Shown: positions 35,799 through 42,289 of the stretch, piece by piece | Position numbering within the stretch: the stretch's first letter is position 1 | How the letters are laid out: every line of letters starts with the position of its first letter | Source of the DNA: Bacteroidota bacterium | GTDB taxonomy: Bacteria > Bacteroidota > Ignavibacteria > Palsa-1295 | Length of the DNA: 64,000 nucleotides | Reading direction: 5' to 3' | Assembly: GCA_021324735.1 (NCBI GenBank) | Contig: JAJPIO010000007.1 | Coordinates: 243,364-307,363, forward strand | Made by a program: the position numbers and the translations under genes | The notes under the pieces: model-generated | The model's input: only the letters and a program-made list of their open reading frames with translations | Databases searched by the model: none | What the model was told of the DNA's origin: nothing

Positions 35799-36818
35799 AT
35801 GGCAACTCCAGACGTAGCACCCCAAGTGCGGCCCGCGCGCACTGCTGCGCAAGCAGCGCCGAAGGCGCCCGCCAGCCGTAAGACCAAAAAGCCGAGCGCT
35901 GCTCCGGTATTGATCCTTACAGCCGTCGCCGCCCTCGTTATCCATATTCTGTTCTGCCTGGCACTTGGCGGCCTGGGCACACGCATTCAGTGGCATCCAT
36001 TCGGTGTCGACGCGAGCGTGTGGCTCGAAGCGTCCGGTGGTGGCGAAAACCAGTTCTTCGTCAACCCGATCCTCAGCTTCCTGCCGTTCGATCTCCTCTT
36101 TGGCTTTGCCATTGCGGTCGTCACCGGTTTTGTCATTCGCCTGCCGTTCTTCCGCGATCGCGTGTATCACACAATCGTCGACTTGAAGAAGCGCTTGCAA
36201 CTCCAGCTTTCTGCTTCGGTGGAAGAGATCGAGTCGATCCTTCGCAACGATCCGGAGAACAACGCCCGCTTACTCGCGCGTCGTGAGGACATCAATCTCG
36301 ATAGCGTCCAGGCGGAGATCAGCGCGATCAACGAGGCACAGCAGTACCTCTCCGGCAAGGGATCCTGGCGCAGCGGTATGGCAACGTACATGCGCTTCCA
36401 CTTCACGGAAGAGTATTCGAACATCGTTACCGGTATGGCTTACGGCGGCGCGGCATTCCTTATCATCGTCGTCGGTGTTCGCGGTCTTAAGTTTATCCCG
36501 GCTTCCAAGCCGTCGTTCATTCTCTTCGCCCTTGGCGTCGAGTTCACGATGCTCACGTTACTCGCCGTAACGATGATCTTCACGATGGAAGAAGAGCGCA
36601 CGGATAGGATCCTGAAGCAGATGGTCGATGCCGTCAAAGGTGGAAAGAAGGCCGCTGGACTTCGCGAGCCAGAGCCAGAGCCGGCACTCCAGCTTACGCG
36701 TGGTGATTACGAGCGTATGGTCCGCGAGCAGATGGATAAGAAGATCATGCAGGTCATGGCCGATAAGGACGACGATGCGCTCCGCCGCATTGCCCTCGAC
36801 CTCGTCACCAAAGGTTAA
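35799..36818 (+). CDS. Hypothetical membrane protein with MotA/ExbB-like topology
   Basis: 339 aa, several predicted TM helices, Ala/Pro/Lys-rich N-terminus, EPEPEP linker and charged C-terminal helix; family not recognised. Confidence 0.5.
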   Translation: MATPDVAPQVRPARTAAQAAPKAPASRKTKKPSAAPVLILTAVAALVIHILFCLALGGLGTRIQWHPFGVDASVWLEASGGGENQFFVNPILSFLPFDLLFGFAIAVVTGFVIRLPFFRDRVYHTIVDLKKRLQLQLSASVEEIESILRNDPENNARLLARREDINLDSVQAEISAINEAQQYLSGKGSWRSGMATYMRFHFTEEYSNIVTGMAYGGAAFLIIVVGVRGLKFIPASKPSFILFALGVEFTMLTLLAVTMIFTMEEERTDRILKQMVDAVKGGKKAAGLREPEPEPALQLTRGDYERMVREQMDKKIMQVMADKDDDALRRIALDLVTKG

Positions 36819-36916: not shown

Positions 36917-36973
36917 TTGGATCAGTGGATCAGGCATTTGTTTGGATCAGTGGATCAGGCATTCCTGCCTGAT

Positions 36974-37113
36974 CGCGCGTAGGTCGGTGCATCCCTTCGA
37001 CAAGCTCAGGGCAGGCTCTGCCCGACACCCCTCGCCCCGGAGGGGCATGGGTTAATTGCCAGGGGTGATAGGCGCACCAATAGTGAGCCGCGACGAAGGA
37101 GCGCAACCCCTGG
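36974..37113 (+). repeat. Composite dispersed palindromic repeat, left copy
   Basis: Contains cccttcgacaagctcagggcaggctct (36993-37019) and gccaggggtga...gcgacgaaggagcgcaacccctgg (37058-37113), both present inverted at 41.4-41.5 kb. Confidence 0.8.
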
Positions 37114-37199
37114 AATATGGGGCAACCACGTAGCGTAGAGTGCCGAAGACACGACATGTTAGTAGCCGGGTGGCGTAAGCCCCCGGTTAGCGATTAGTT

Positions 37200-38270
37200 T
37201 TAAGATTCAGAGTCCCGGAGGGACGACATATTTAGTGGATTGGACACAAAGCTTTGACCGCGCATGACAAGCTCAGTGTAGGTCAGTACTTCGATTCCAT
37301 GCAGCGAATAATTGAGCTTGCGCAGACCCTCTTTTTGCTCTTGGGACCAATCAGCGGATTGACCGATCAAGATAAACGCTCTAGGACGAAGAACTGAGTA
37401 TCTGTTACCATATTTTCGCTCAATCTCTCGCTCAAGTTCGAGGATGTGCATATCCATTTCGCAAATATAATTCACCGCTTGACCAATAGCGGAATTTGCT
37501 TCTTTGCTCCAGACCCAAGATCCACTATGGCTACCATCCTGAACAATGACTGGAGCCGATGGCAATTTGATTTCCAATATATCGATGAAGGAGTCGAGCG
37601 TCGGGAAAAGATAATCGGGCATAATCCCTGTGATGTTGATCTTTTGCTTTTCAATTGGTTTGCCATAGTTCGCACCAAAAAGCCAATTATGCCTGTAGAT
37701 CCATGATTGCCAAGAATCGTCACCAGCAGTCTCGGGATGATGCTCTCCCAAGCGACGCTTCAATTCCTCTATTACGGCATTGCGCATGTGTTGAAATTGA
37801 CCAGCGGCGATTGTATTCGCAAGGTCAGGATCGTTTTCATTTATCAACTTCCAAAATTCAGAGGAGTGACCTTGAGCGAGAATTTGCTGAAACACCTCAC
37901 GCAAGTTCTTGTCATCAACAATTATGGCATTTTCTTTAGGTACAACAAGGTAATCATGCGTTCCACTTGATACACCCGTCGCCGCAATGATCTTGCGACT
38001 CTCAACCGCTTCGACTAAAAGGTTGATTGCTTGAGTATTAAGCTCAATGTGCACACCTTCATATAACTGTAGTTTCCTGAAATCCTCTTCCGGGATTTCC
38101 TCCCATTTATTATCCTTGTTTTTCTTAAATCGAAAAAGATTACCACGCACCCCTCCGTCATGCACCTCAGGATAAAAGGCTAATAAAGTTGTTGGCGTCT
38201 CATCCAATCGGACAGTGTTAGTTTTGGCGAAGTGCTTGCCTACGCTTTTCGTTCTTATTTGCTCTGCCAT
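37200..38270 (-). CDS. sduA: Shedu anti-phage nuclease (SduA, DUF4263)
   Basis: C-terminal DUF4263-like PD-(D/E)xK core: SWQSWIYRHNWLFG, GIMPDYLFPTLDSFIDILEIKLP, SKEANSAIGQAVNYI, RPRAFILIGQSADWS...GLRKLNYSLHGIEVLTYTEL. Confidence 0.83.
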   Translation of the reverse strand: MAEQIRTKSVGKHFAKTNTVRLDETPTTLLAFYPEVHDGGVRGNLFRFKKNKDNKWEEIPEEDFRKLQLYEGVHIELNTQAINLLVEAVESRKIIAATGVSSGTHDYLVVPKENAIIVDDKNLREVFQQILAQGHSSEFWKLINENDPDLANTIAAGQFQHMRNAVIEELKRRLGEHHPETAGDDSWQSWIYRHNWLFGANYGKPIEKQKINITGIMPDYLFPTLDSFIDILEIKLPSAPVIVQDGSHSGSWVWSKEANSAIGQAVNYICEMDMHILELEREIERKYGNRYSVLRPRAFILIGQSADWSQEQKEGLRKLNYSLHGIEVLTYTELVMRGQSFVSNPLNMSSLRDSES

Positions 38271-38301
38271 ATCTATTTCCTTCCAATCGATGATTGCCTT
38301 T

Positions 38302-40689
38302 TTACCCCTTCAAAAACCCCAACTCATACACCTGCGGCTGCAGCTTCTCGGTGAGCACTTCATACGCTGCTTTGAACGGAGCAAAACTAACCGGCGGGAA
38401 ATCGCCGCTGGCGTTGCGTGCTTCTATTGCTTTACGGACCTGATACCAGCCAACATCCGGGCGGTTTAACTTCAACTCTTCACGTACGGTGTGCACATCG
38501 GTGTGCGCAAAGTACGCCCTCCACAGCTCTTTACCTGCCGCTAGAACTGCTTTCGCTTCCGGTGAAAAAGTCTTGCCCTTTATGTACTGCACCATGAAGT
38601 CGCTCTCGAACCGGTCCGGCGCACCGACCTCTTCTTCCGTGTAGGGAATAAAGTGGTTCACGATGCTCCACTTCTTGCCGTTCCATTCCAGGTCGTTCGC
38701 GCTGGCGGTGAGGTTGCTGCCGTTGAAGAGCATCCAGACCAAGCAATCGTTTTTGAATTCTTCTGATAACGATTGATCGGCTTGTAGAAATTGATCGCGG
38801 TTATTTAGCCATGTAGGCTTGATCAATCTTCTTACTGAGAACATTACCGCCATTTGCCATAGGTTTTCTTGCGTAACATAAAAACCGTTTCCCTGACTAC
38901 AAGTCGAAGAAAACAATGCGGTCAACGTACCGGCGTGCTGCAAGTCATTAGCGTTGCTAAGTAAATAACCAATCGCATCTGAGCGCCATGCGGTTACCTT
39001 TGCCTTCGCCAATTGCGGATGTATCGCATTTTTTAGAGGAATGTTTATCGTATCAGTTTTTAGGCGAGGCAACCAAAGACTTAGAAAATTCTTGTTGCTA
39101 ATGTTATAAAAAGTTTTTTCACCTATTGCCCTGCCGGTTTTATCCAAAACCTCCGTGGCAATTTCCGTGATCTCGATTTTTTTATTAGAGTTAGTATTTG
39201 TTTGCCATATCAAAAAGCCAATCGGGAAATCACCACTCAGCCCTTCGAAAGCCTTACTATGAACGATGAAACCGCCGAGGTATTTTGCATTCCAAATCTC
39301 TCTAAACTTCTCGAAGTTTGGCGCATTGACATACTTTAATGTACTAAACGTCGCAAGTGTGGCATTTGGAAGCTCTCTGGAAATTCGTGCTATAAACTGA
39401 GTGAACAGTTCACGCGAAGCATAACCGTAATCATCCATCATTTCTGCCGTGCGCGTTTTTGCAACATCCGTTTTCCCTTCGTAGCCAAGATTGTTCGCGG
39501 CCTCCGCATATGGCGGATTCATCAGCACGAGAATCTTTTTCTTCGCGGAGATCGCATCGCGCAGCTTTTGAGGGATCTTGTTCGTGAGCGAATAATCTAT
39601 TGTGCCGAGATCGGTGATGTCATCGTTCAGGTAATCGTATTGGAAACGTTCTGCTCCAACGCAAGTCTTTGTGGCATACATGACATCAACGTCCGCCTGA
39701 TCGAGCGTACTCATGTAGACGTTACGCGGGTTCGAGTGCTTGACTTCGAGATTACCGACGCCGCAGCACATATCCCACACGATGTAGTCCTTCTGCCAGT
39801 TGTTGCCGAGCACTTCTGTTAGCTTGTCGTATGCCTTATCTACGACTTTCAGCGGTGTGTAGTACGCACCCTTAAAGCTTCGTTCATCGAGCGGGATGAG
39901 GCTGTCGCGGCGCTCTAATAGGTAATCTCGGTATTCGCTTGCGGGTGGCCGGTGATAGATCGCCCAGAACTGCCGGTATCCCTCCTTGTTGCCTAATTTG
40001 TAAAGTTTACCTCCGAGGCTAAACATCGGCATCGGACCTTGTGGCGTTGCCTGGTGAAGTAACTGCGCCGGCAGGTTCTCATGCGTCGCGGTCGTGCCAT
40101 CACTCATTACATCTGCAAAGAAGAGCAAAGCATAGTCGTCTGGCGCCACTCCAGCGATCTCCTTGCCGATCATCTCGACCCATTTATCGAAAACTTGCTT
40201 TAGATTGTCGGGCGTGATCTGCGTCCGAATAATTTCTCCGGACTTGATCGCCTCCTTGAAGGTCTTGATGAACTCCTCTTCGTGCGTCTCGATGCGAAAG
40301 GAGACGAAGTGCGTACCAATAAAGGCAGAGACGGCATCCAGCGCTTCCTGTGTATATCCACTAGCACGTTTACCCCACTTGATCGTCTTCTTCGCAAGAA
40401 ACGGGACCACAACATCACTCTTCATAATGGCCGCCTTCTGCGTATCGCAGACGGCGAGTAACGGGGGAACATGTTCGCCTTTGTCCAACGCCTGCTGCAC
40501 GTAATGCAGCAGTTGCGTAAACATCGCATAGGTGGAGTTCTTATACCCGTCCTTCGCCTCGAACCAGACCTCATCGGTTTGGATGTCGATCAGGTTTTTC
40601 GAGTATCCTTTGAGACCGAGGGCCTTGATGTAGATGTCCTTTACATCTTCTTCGCTCTTGGCTTGCTTTAACTTTTCGAACAGGGTCAT
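38302..40689 (-). CDS. Type IIG-like restriction enzyme/N6-adenine DNA methyltransferase
   Basis: VWDMCCGVGNLE (SAM motif I), LVLMNPPYAEA (motif IV NPPY), N-terminal VWFEAKDG...QLLHYVQ resembling a PD-(D/E)xK nuclease core; no separate S subunit adjacent. Confidence 0.75.
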   Translation of the reverse strand: MTLFEKLKQAKSEEDVKDIYIKALGLKGYSKNLIDIQTDEVWFEAKDGYKNSTYAMFTQLLHYVQQALDKGEHVPPLLAVCDTQKAAIMKSDVVVPFLAKKTIKWGKRASGYTQEALDAVSAFIGTHFVSFRIETHEEEFIKTFKEAIKSGEIIRTQITPDNLKQVFDKWVEMIGKEIAGVAPDDYALLFFADVMSDGTTATHENLPAQLLHQATPQGPMPMFSLGGKLYKLGNKEGYRQFWAIYHRPPASEYRDYLLERRDSLIPLDERSFKGAYYTPLKVVDKAYDKLTEVLGNNWQKDYIVWDMCCGVGNLEVKHSNPRNVYMSTLDQADVDVMYATKTCVGAERFQYDYLNDDITDLGTIDYSLTNKIPQKLRDAISAKKKILVLMNPPYAEAANNLGYEGKTDVAKTRTAEMMDDYGYASRELFTQFIARISRELPNATLATFSTLKYVNAPNFEKFREIWNAKYLGGFIVHSKAFEGLSGDFPIGFLIWQTNTNSNKKIEITEIATEVLDKTGRAIGEKTFYNISNKNFLSLWLPRLKTDTINIPLKNAIHPQLAKAKVTAWRSDAIGYLLSNANDLQHAGTLTALFSSTCSQGNGFYVTQENLWQMAVMFSVRRLIKPTWLNNRDQFLQADQSLSEEFKNDCLVWMLFNGSNLTASANDLEWNGKKWSIVNHFIPYTEEEVGAPDRFESDFMVQYIKGKTFSPEAKAVLAAGKELWRAYFAHTDVHTVREELKLNRPDVGWYQVRKAIEARNASGDFPPVSFAPFKAAYEVLTEKLQPQVYELGFLKG

Positions 40690-40716
40690 TGAACTGGGTA
40701 TTAAATCACCTTGATA

Positions 40717-41031
40717 TTAAAACCATGAGACCGAGATAGGATCTCCTGCGTACGGGACTCGCAGCATGTTAAAACGAGTGGCCGGTATTTTACATCCCCC
40801 GACCATCCCTGTGTCTGCTCCGGCTGCTTGAGCAAAGAAGGTTATCCTATAAATAAAAACTCCGGGCGTGTACCCGGAGTCGTCAGTTTGAACTCGGATT
40901 ATTGTTCTTCCAATTACTCTGTGAGTGATTACCTCTTCCTCTTGCTGTCCGAGTTCAGGATTTAATTGTTGGTCCCGATCTTCGAAGAGATGAAGTTGAT
41001 CGGGATCCACTTTGCGCTTTTTGATTCGCAT
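40717..41031 (-). CDS. Small hypothetical protein, first gene of the restriction/Shedu operon
   Basis: 104 aa, 27 nt upstream of the restriction-methyltransferase on the same strand; N-terminal DPDQLHLFED. Confidence 0.55.
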   Translation of the reverse strand: MRIKKRKVDPDQLHLFEDRDQQLNPELGQQEEEVITHRVIGRTIIRVQTDDSGYTPGVFIYRITFFAQAAGADTGMVGGCKIPATRFNMLRVPYAGDPISVSWF

Positions 41032-41391
41032 AGCGTTTCCTCTTAATGTGGACGCGCACGATCATTGTGCATCGCACACCTCCGGGTTTTTGGTTAAGGA
41101 GTTTACCGGCTTACCACGATCGCGTGGTGTAAGCCTAGCGAATCATGGTGGGCCGGGACACTCCACGCGTTATCGTATCAATCGTGGTATTTGTGGTCTC
41201 CATTCGGTCTGTGTCCCGTTCAAAAAAACTGTTTCTTAACTAAACGTCATACATCGTGCCAAATTAGAAAATGGGTATTTTGTTTTATTTTCCGCGTAAG
41301 AATTTTTGGTGTTGTAATCGGAGTACAATCGTTGTCGATTATCGCGTGCACTCTGTCGCTCTTTCAGGGCTTTGGAATAAAATAAACGCAC

Positions 41392-41563
41392 GCGATCCAG
41401 GGGTTGCGCTCCTTCGTCGCTTCACCCCTGGCTATTAACCTTCGTTCCTCCGGCACTTTGGGATTTAAATAATCGACTCCTTCGGGGCAGCGGGTCGGGC
41501 AAGAGCCTGCCCTGAGCTTGTCGAAGGGACCCGCCGATCTACGCGTGTTCGGCACGTCCGTAC
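41392..41563 (-). repeat. Composite dispersed palindromic repeat, right copy (inverted relative to left)
   Basis: ccaggggttgcgctccttcgtcgcttcacccctggc and agagcctgccctgagcttgtcgaaggg (41502-41528, exact 27-bp reverse complement of 36993-37019). Confidence 0.8.
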
Positions 41564-41664
41564 AATTAGAGCGTGAACCGCGTCAAGCACGATCGATCTC
41601 GTCCAGCCGAAGATTCTTCGCTCCGCTCAGAATGACTCCTACTTTTTGAGAGTCACGGTCAGGC

Positions 41665-41725
41665 GGGAGGGGTGTCGGGCAAGAGCCTGCCCGGAGCTTG
41701 TCGAAGGGGTACACCGACCTACGCG
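41665..41725 (-). repeat. Third copy of the FDKLRAG/CPELVEG-encoding repeat
   Basis: gaggggtgtcgggcaagagcctgcccggagcttgtcgaaggggtacaccgacctacgcg is close to the reverse complement of about 36976-37033. Confidence 0.75.
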
Positions 41726-41744
41726 TGCCGTTCGCATTCGTAGC

Positions 41745-41825
41745 CGTAGCCTTCAGGCTACGCCGTGGGGTGCCAATATCATTCAGAGCGTACTTGTCCC
41801 CAAGCCGTAGGCTAAAGCCTACGGC
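41745..41825. repeat. Pair of short palindromic repeats
   Basis: cgtagcc-ttca-ggctacg (41745-41762) and gccgtaggct-aa-agcctacggc (41804-41825). Confidence 0.7.
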
Positions 41826-42289
41826 GACCTATCATTACGCGTATCGGCATTCCCCACAGCCCACATTCCCCTAATTATTCGATTTTGTGGATAAATAATT
41901 GAATAATTCTATATATTTGTGAAACATTTTATGCCATATTGCGTATCACTCTGACTGCCCAAGTTCCAACCTGGTAAACTGTCTCTGAGAGTACACTTAT
42001 GCAGATCCCTGCCGTTAGAGTCAGCTTGAGCATTCGGAAGCCACGAAGTCCTGGAACTGCGAAGAAAAAGCCTCAGGTGCTACTGTCCAGGAGACATTGC
42101 CTTCCCCTTCTTTGAAAATTGAGTAGGTTCTACCGCAGTGTACTATGCGTTAGAATCTAAAATAGATCGGAAGGAGTGCAGAAATCCACCGTACTTGAAC
42201 AACTGATCCCAGAACCCGAGTATCGGCGCAATTTTCGCAACCGATACCGTTTTTGCGATGTTTGTGGGCTGCCCTTAGTATAGGCACGG

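What the first reader, a model, noticed from the sequence alone, without database searches (positions are those of the whole stretch)
37200..41031. Compact three-gene defence operon: 104-aa protein, Type IIG-like restriction-methyltransferase, Shedu nuclease
Three minus-strand genes with gaps of about 27 and 31 nt. The middle gene has SAM (DMCCGVGNLE) and NPPY motifs plus an N-terminal FEAKDG/QLLHYVQ nuclease-like core. The third matches the Shedu SduA DUF4263 core (PDYL...EIK...GQAVNY). Type IIG and Shedu are each known as stand-alone systems. Their apparent co-transcription with a third conserved-looking small gene suggests a combined system or a functional partnership. Two-layer coupling (methylation-sensitive cleavage plus Shedu) is inference.
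Basis: partly seen in the sequence, partly recalled or inferred. Interest (0 to 1): 0.7.

Follow-up and report, generated by a model that had tools for sequence, protein, structure and literature searches.

The report
Restriction enzyme with a trailing Shedu nuclease
A small stretch of imported DNA in this bacterium carries a one-gene restriction-modification enzyme followed directly by a Shedu anti-phage nuclease; the exact trio is not seen elsewhere, but Shedu genes turn up inside quite different restriction operons in other bacteria, so the pairing may be a recurring two-layer defence rather than a new three-part machine.

Summary
In detail: three minus-strand ORFs (104, 795, 356 aa), gaps 27 and 31 nt. 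The 356-aa protein is a genuine Shedu (PF14082 above cut-off; PADLOC 1e-124; full-length match to solved SduA 8ti8). The 795-aa protein is a type IIG-like nuclease-methylase with intact, invariant motifs (fold nearest DrdV, M.TaqI, LlaBIII), from a widespread family without a Pfam model (366 relatives in species genomes). The 104-aa ORF is weak: only its first ~57 codons and a structured leader recur, once, and a strong terminator hairpin lies inside it.
The three-gene order is not conserved: 0 of 80 closest homologues of the 795-aa gene and no other family genome has it. Empty sites in five relatives show that the whole ~5.3 kb is an insertion. Yet Shedu-next-to-R-M recurs: in two phylum samples 5 of 31 other Shedu loci lie within 20 nt, co-directional, of type I, type IIL (MmeI) or type III-like genes, and one lies in a BREX operon; 0 of 12 HamA controls. 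The nearest relative of the window's Shedu (57%) sits between hsdM and hsdS.
Best reading: two defence layers in one acquired transcription unit; coupling unproven. A side finding: in its family the 795-aa gene is repeatedly replaced internally by whole R-M systems.

The parts
36920..42280 (.). Strain-specific insertion (approximate limits) between a conserved gene (35799-36818) and aroF/DAHP synthase (42290-)
   Evidence: The two flanking genes are 113-169 bp apart in G001, G002, G003, G007 and G008
38302..40689 (-). 795-aa type IIG-like restriction-modification enzyme: N-terminal PD-(D/E)XK nuclease (about aa 1-150), linker, gamma-class N6-adenine methylase (about aa 240-480), variable TRD-like block (aa 496-615), conserved C-terminus
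   Evidence: weak methylase HMM hits
37200..38270 (-). Shedu nuclease (SduA), DUF4263/PF14082, catalytic D219, E233-I-K235
40717..41031 (-). 104-aa ORF; first ~57 codons conserved in G005 (QLHLF/QLDLF near the N-terminus); its second half is unsupported
41095..41165 (-). Conserved leader element, predicted stem-loop (GGAGTGTCC...GGTAAACTCC) upstream of the 104-aa ORF
   Evidence: near-identical over about 67 nt in G005 in front of another R-M operon; folding z about -4.6 and -5.1; no Rfam match
40858..40881 (-). Intrinsic-terminator-like hairpin inside the 104-aa ORF, conserved in G005
   Evidence: z -5.9
36971..37114 (-). Left repeat array, inverted relative to the right one
   Evidence: I1-I4; GAGCTTGTCGAAGGG core found in this window only at this insert
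41396..41727 (+). Right repeat array, inverted relative to the left one

Best explanation
An acquired ~5.3-kb defence insert holds two nucleases in one probable transcription unit. The 795-aa enzyme is the first layer: it methylates an adenine in its own recognition sequence on host DNA and cuts incoming DNA that lacks the mark. Shedu, 31 nt downstream, is the second layer: it attacks DNA that shows a second sign of infection, most plausibly free DNA ends, which the first enzyme also makes. The 104-aa ORF is mainly a leader with a structured 5' region and an internal terminator that may limit expression; it is not an essential third component. Shown: gene identities, intact motifs, insertion, recurrence of Shedu in R-M operons. 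Inferred: enzymatic activities, co-transcription, end-sensing by this Shedu, and any feeding of ends from one layer to the other.
For: Shedu identity and R-M identity. Insertion between core genes, with empty sites in five relatives. No terminator-like or promoter-like site called in the two short intergenic gaps. Other Shedu genes flush with R-M genes: G007 (hsdM-Shedu-hsdS), G327 (hsdS-Shedu), G117 (hsdS-Shedu-hsdR), G893 (MmeI-type enzyme overlapping Shedu by 4 nt), G719 (GHKL-Shedu beside ResIII-like and beta-methylase genes); G171 lies in a BREX operon. They are scattered on the Shedu tree, so the association probably arose more than once. Type I Shedu EcSduA binds DNA ends and nicks near them (PMC12904381). 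Accessory defence genes inside R-M operons are an established pattern: PrrC (PMC12707154), TgvAB (PMC12409362).
Against: The pair itself is unique: 0 of 80 closest homologues of the 795-aa gene have Shedu. That family carries assorted, mostly non-recurring genes directly downstream in about 21 loci, so Shedu may be one more piece of cargo. The internal terminator could uncouple the leader ORF from the rest. DNA-end sensing was shown for EcSduA; this Shedu aligns over its full length with SduA structure 8ti8 but only in its C-terminal part with 8ps4, so the sensing step may not transfer. The HamA control is small (12 loci).
Confidence: 0.5

Rival explanations
1. Two independent defence genes that landed together: the 795-aa gene is a mobile stand-alone R-M gene with variable cargo behind it, and Shedu is simply the cargo here. 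They act additively without any mechanistic link.
For: The 795-aa family is stand-alone: no recurrent partner in 80 loci. It occurs on small plasmids and in viral contigs. The authors of PMC12137116 showed that GrwAB and the adjacent VcSduA act independently.
Against: Shedu sits inside type I operons between hsd genes, or overlaps an MmeI-type gene, more often than chance placement would suggest.
Confidence: 0.38
2. Guard model: Shedu is activated when the upstream R-M enzyme is inhibited by a phage anti-restriction protein, as PrrC guards EcoPrrI.
For: The PrrC precedent inside a type IC operon (PMC12707154) and the same placement of Shedu in G007, G327 and G117.
Against: No sign of contact or of a sensor for an inhibited type IIG enzyme; partners are of unrelated types (I, IIL, III-like, BREX), which favours a common signal such as DNA ends.
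Confidence: 0.07
3. One reading: an obligate three-component system, 104-aa protein plus R-M enzyme plus Shedu.
For: Tight spacing in this genome only.
Against: The order is not found at any other locus of the 795-aa gene, the 104-aa ORF or Shedu examined; the 104-aa ORF is only half conserved.
Confidence: 0.05

Closest known systems
Shedu (SduA); PDB 8ti8; PADLOC PDLC00390
   Same: DUF4263 nuclease above the Pfam cut-off, catalytic D / E-x-K, full-length alignment to 8ti8
   Different: N-terminal domain scores below the SduA_N cut-off (21.6 against 27 bits); placed in an R-M transcription unit, not alone
Type IIG / IIL enzymes (DrdV, MmeI)
   Same: Nuclease, gamma-class m6A methylase and a variable TRD-like block in one chain; DrdV is the best fold match
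   Different: 795 aa, shorter than DrdV (about 1010 aa) and than the MmeI-type protein in G893 (917 aa); no Pfam family matches it; no solved relative by sequence
PrrC in the EcoPrrI type IC operon
   Same: A second nuclease gene embedded in an R-M operon
   Different: PrrC cuts tRNA and senses R-M inhibition; Shedu is a DNA nuclease and no sensing of R-M has been shown
TgvAB in the V. cholerae VPI-2 type I operon
   Same: A second restriction system inside hsd genes
   Different: TgvAB is a GmrSD-like, modification-dependent enzyme
VcSduA / paraMORC3 (Shedu type I-D)
   Same: Same nuclease domain; a GHKL-Shedu lies beside R-M-like genes in G719
   Different: GHKL ATPase N-terminus, absent in the window's Shedu

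Membership tests
Shedu | SduA_C / DUF4263 nuclease domain above the curated cut-off | tested here: met
   65.5 bits against 27; PADLOC SduA 9.8e-125
Shedu | PD-(D/E)XK catalytic residues intact | tested here: met
   D219, E233-I-K235, also present in the G007 relative
Shedu | N-terminal SduA regulatory domain | tested here: inconclusive
   PF21407 21.6 bits, cut-off 27; full-length alignment to 8ti8
Shedu | DNA-end binding and nicking | not testable with these tools
   shown for EcSduA (PMC12904381); needs biochemistry
Type IIG restriction-modification enzyme | Nuclease and m6A methylase motifs in one polypeptide | tested here: met
   invariant D35, E44-A-K46, Q59; DMCCGVGNLE; NPPY
Type IIG restriction-modification enzyme | Overall fold like a known type IIG enzyme | tested here: inconclusive
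   DrdV best, 761 alignment columns, E 8e-9, but TM-scores are low (about 0.24) and residues 151-275 are poorly predicted; the methylase part is the secure part
Type IIG restriction-modification enzyme | Sequence match to Eco57I, MmeI or other curated Pfam models | tested here: not met
   no Pfam hit in the window protein; only weak MTS hits in 3 of 30 homologues. Filed as type IIG-like, not as a member of those Pfam families
Type IIG restriction-modification enzyme | Cleavage and methylation of one recognition sequence | not testable with these tools
   needs a methylome and a restriction assay
   0 of 80 loci; absent from the other family genomes
   29 of 57 residues identical and in-frame gaps up to the hairpin, no conservation after it; one relative only
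R-M-embedded accessory nuclease (PrrC/TgvAB-like arrangement) | Accessory gene within or flush with R-M genes, recurrently | tested here: met
   6 of 32 Shedu loci including this one, gap at most 31 nt, co-directional; HamA control 0 of 12

The most novel reading that the evidence does not exclude
Shedu is a general plug-in second layer for methylation-based restriction: R-M enzymes of unrelated types cut unmarked DNA, and the Shedu encoded in the same operon recognises the resulting ends and finishes the destruction, which would explain its repeated insertion into type I, IIL, IIG-like, III-like and BREX operons.
Probability: 0.25. Interest if true: 0.65.

Novelty: new variant of a known kind. 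Interest (0 to 1): 0.42.

Why it matters
Shedu is treated in the reviews read here as a single-protein system. Recurrent placement inside R-M operons suggests that in part of its range it works with restriction, and gives a direct test of how an end-sensing nuclease could tell phage DNA from host DNA: the partner enzyme supplies ends only on unmarked DNA. Separately, the 795-aa enzyme belongs to a widespread but unnamed family that Pfam and NCBIfam miss, so annotation pipelines overlook a common single-gene R-M system.

Tried and rejected
Shedu in genome contigs and viral contigs by pattern: nothing. The 104-aa protein in plasmids and viral contigs: nothing. The leader core in viral contigs: nothing. 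The 795-aa protein in annotated phages: nothing. Rfam: only sub-threshold Acido-Lenti-1 hits downstream of Shedu. Considered and dropped: that the repeated C-terminal ~53 aa is a site-specific recombination site (breakpoints cluster, but no enzyme or shared core was found and one fragment begins at aa 637); that the tandem small ORFs behind the Ligilactobacillus homologue are copies of that C-terminus (they encode an unrelated small protein); that Fic is a regular partner of the 795-aa gene (3 of 80 loci).

Full report
OBSERVATION. The window is part of one contig of a 3.55-Mb bacterial genome (G000). One member of its family (G012) matches a public record titled Ignavibacteriae bacterium (L088), which points to that lineage; this is an inference from a relative.

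WHAT THE 356-aa PROTEIN IS. It is a Shedu nuclease: PF14082 at 65.5 bits (cut-off 27), SduA_N at 21.6 bits (below its cut-off of 27), PADLOC SduA 9.8e-125. It aligns over residues 9-339 with the solved SduA 8ti8 (E 5e-10), but only in its C-terminal half with 8ps4. The catalytic D219 and E233-I-K235 are present.

WHAT THE 795-aa PROTEIN IS. No Pfam model hits it, nor at a meaningful level any of 30 homologues, and no solved structure matches by sequence. Yet the family is large and tightly conserved: a genome scan found 366 relatives, the best 80 at 68-76% identity in Pseudomonadota, Bacteroidota, Campylobacterota, Ignavibacteria, Leptospira relatives and others, plus small plasmids of Acinetobacter and Fluviibacter and six viral contigs. 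Such identity across phyla means extensive horizontal transfer (inference). Over 79 aligned sequences the nuclease motif (D35, E44-A-K46, Q59), the methylase motif FKGAYYTP, the SAM motif DMCCGVGNLE and NPPY are invariant or nearly so, and a block at aa 496-615 is among the most variable, as expected for a target-recognition domain. The predicted structure (mean pLDDT 74, low at 151-275) matches DrdV, a type IIG enzyme, best, then M.TaqI, LlaBIII, M.BseCI, CamA and BrxX; TM-scores are low, so this supports the class and not a close relation.

WHAT THE 104-aa ORF IS. It has one relative among 100 related genomes, and only over its first ~57 codons. There 29 of 57 residues agree and gaps are in frame, which favours coding; beyond a terminator-like hairpin (40881..40858, z -5.9) nothing is conserved. 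More conserved than the ORF is the ~67-nt leader before it, with a predicted stem-loop (z about -4.6 and -5.1). In G005 the same leader and ORF start stand in front of a different operon, a DNA methylase plus a Z1-domain ATPase. I read it as a leader/attenuator carrying a short peptide (inference). The peptide has QLHLF (QLDLF in G005), which resembles beta-clamp-binding peptides (own knowledge, untested).

IS THE THREE-GENE ORDER REAL BIOLOGY? Not as a conserved system. None of the 80 closest homologues of the 795-aa gene has Shedu, the 104-aa ORF, hsd genes or the leader within the flanks held (up to 6 kb each side, shorter at contig ends). In the family, a close Shedu relative occurs otherwise only in G007, and there without the 795-aa gene. 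About 21 of the 80 loci have a co-directional gene within 60 nt downstream of the 795-aa gene, with little recurrence. The flanking core genes are 113-169 bp apart in G001, G002, G003, G007 and G008, so the whole region is an insertion in this lineage. It is bounded by inverted repeat arrays (36971-37114 and 41396-41727) whose core occurs six times in the genome, three of them here.

SHEDU AND RESTRICTION OPERONS. The nearest relative of the window's Shedu (57%, G007) lies between hsdM and hsdS. In a sample of 398 genomes of the phylum and 399 genomes of another (Pseudomonadota, inferred from the title of the locus used as centre) I collected 32 Shedu loci including the window's. Six have an R-M gene on the same strand within 31 nt: this window, G007, G327 (hsdS), G117 (hsdS and hsdR), G893 (MmeI-type enzyme with all five MmeI Pfam domains, 4-nt overlap) and G719 (a GHKL-Shedu of 22 bits, below the Pfam cut-off, beside ResIII-like and beta-methylase genes). 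A seventh, G171, lies in a BREX operon with PglZ and BrxL. A control with HamA (PF08878), another defence nuclease, gave 0 of 12. Excluding the window, 5 of 31 against 0 of 12 is not significant on its own; random genes would be expected well under 1% of the time (rough estimate, not computed here). The reference proteins for this scan came partly from these loci, a mild bias in favour of Shedu. On a tree the R-M-linked Shedus are scattered, so the association probably arose repeatedly.

HOW IT MOST LIKELY WORKS. The fused enzyme marks host DNA and cuts unmarked DNA. Shedu then attacks DNA by a second cue. For EcSduA that cue is DNA ends (PMC12904381), and R-M cleavage makes ends only on unmarked DNA, so the pair would form two successive layers. 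Whether this Shedu, whose N-terminus resembles that of 8ti8 and not that of 8ps4, senses ends is unknown. The alternative, two independent defences on one insert, is nearly as likely; PMC12137116 reports such independence for another Shedu and its neighbour. PrrC (PMC12707154) and TgvAB (PMC12409362) are precedents for accessory nucleases in R-M operons.

A SECOND FINDING. In this family the 795-aa gene is a replacement hotspot. In G004 two loci keep its first 196-236 codons and its last 59-158 codons, with a complete XhoI-type R-M pair in one and an Eco29kI-type pair in the other between them; G003 keeps the first 195 codons followed by methylase and HNH pieces; G001, G006, G011 and G012 keep 3' fragments, those of G012 behind a Fic gene. 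Breakpoints cluster near codons 195 and 742-748. The 5' remnants show third-position-biased differences, but these may predate the disruption. Among 47 other genomes with the gene mostly isolated 3' fragments were seen. Replacement of one R-M system by another is in keeping with the known mobility of R-M genes (own knowledge); the clustering is unexplained.

Noticed in passing
L024:7680-10159, L025:8530-11619, L026:13216-14577 (G004, G003): Homologues of the 795-aa gene with their middle replaced by other R-M genes (XhoI-type pair, Eco29kI-type pair, methylase/HNH pieces), leaving open 5' reading frames of 195-236 codons and, in G004, 3' remnants.
   Followed up: partly
L027:1215-1376, L028:1984-2136, L029:9602-9745, L030:8890-9045, L021:3424-3573: Copies of the last ~50 codons of the 795-aa gene on their own, all beginning within a few codons of aa 742-748; in G012 two follow a Fic gene.
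   Followed up: partly
window 41095-41165 and L032:1355-1425: A ~67-nt near-identical structured leader precedes two different R-M operons in two species; no Rfam match.
   Followed up: partly
window 40717-41031, residues 12-16: QLHLF (QLDLF in G005) near the N-terminus resembles a beta-clamp-binding peptide.
   Followed up: no
L199:7668-11566 (G893): MmeI-type type IIL enzyme and Shedu overlapping by 4 nt: the cleanest independent type IIG-like plus Shedu pair.
   Followed up: yes
L168:1858-15999 (G171): Shedu and Fic genes inside an apparent BREX operon between an Eco57I-type methylase and PglZ.
   Followed up: partly
window 37139-37186: Sub-threshold Acido-Lenti-1 RNA match (27.7 bits, cut-off 37) just downstream of Shedu, within a repeat-rich flank.
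   Followed up: no
L074:8745-10416 (Ligilactobacillus salivarius plasmid): Tandem ~500-bp repeats encoding a 65-aa protein between a distant homologue of the 795-aa gene and a Fic gene.
   Followed up: partly
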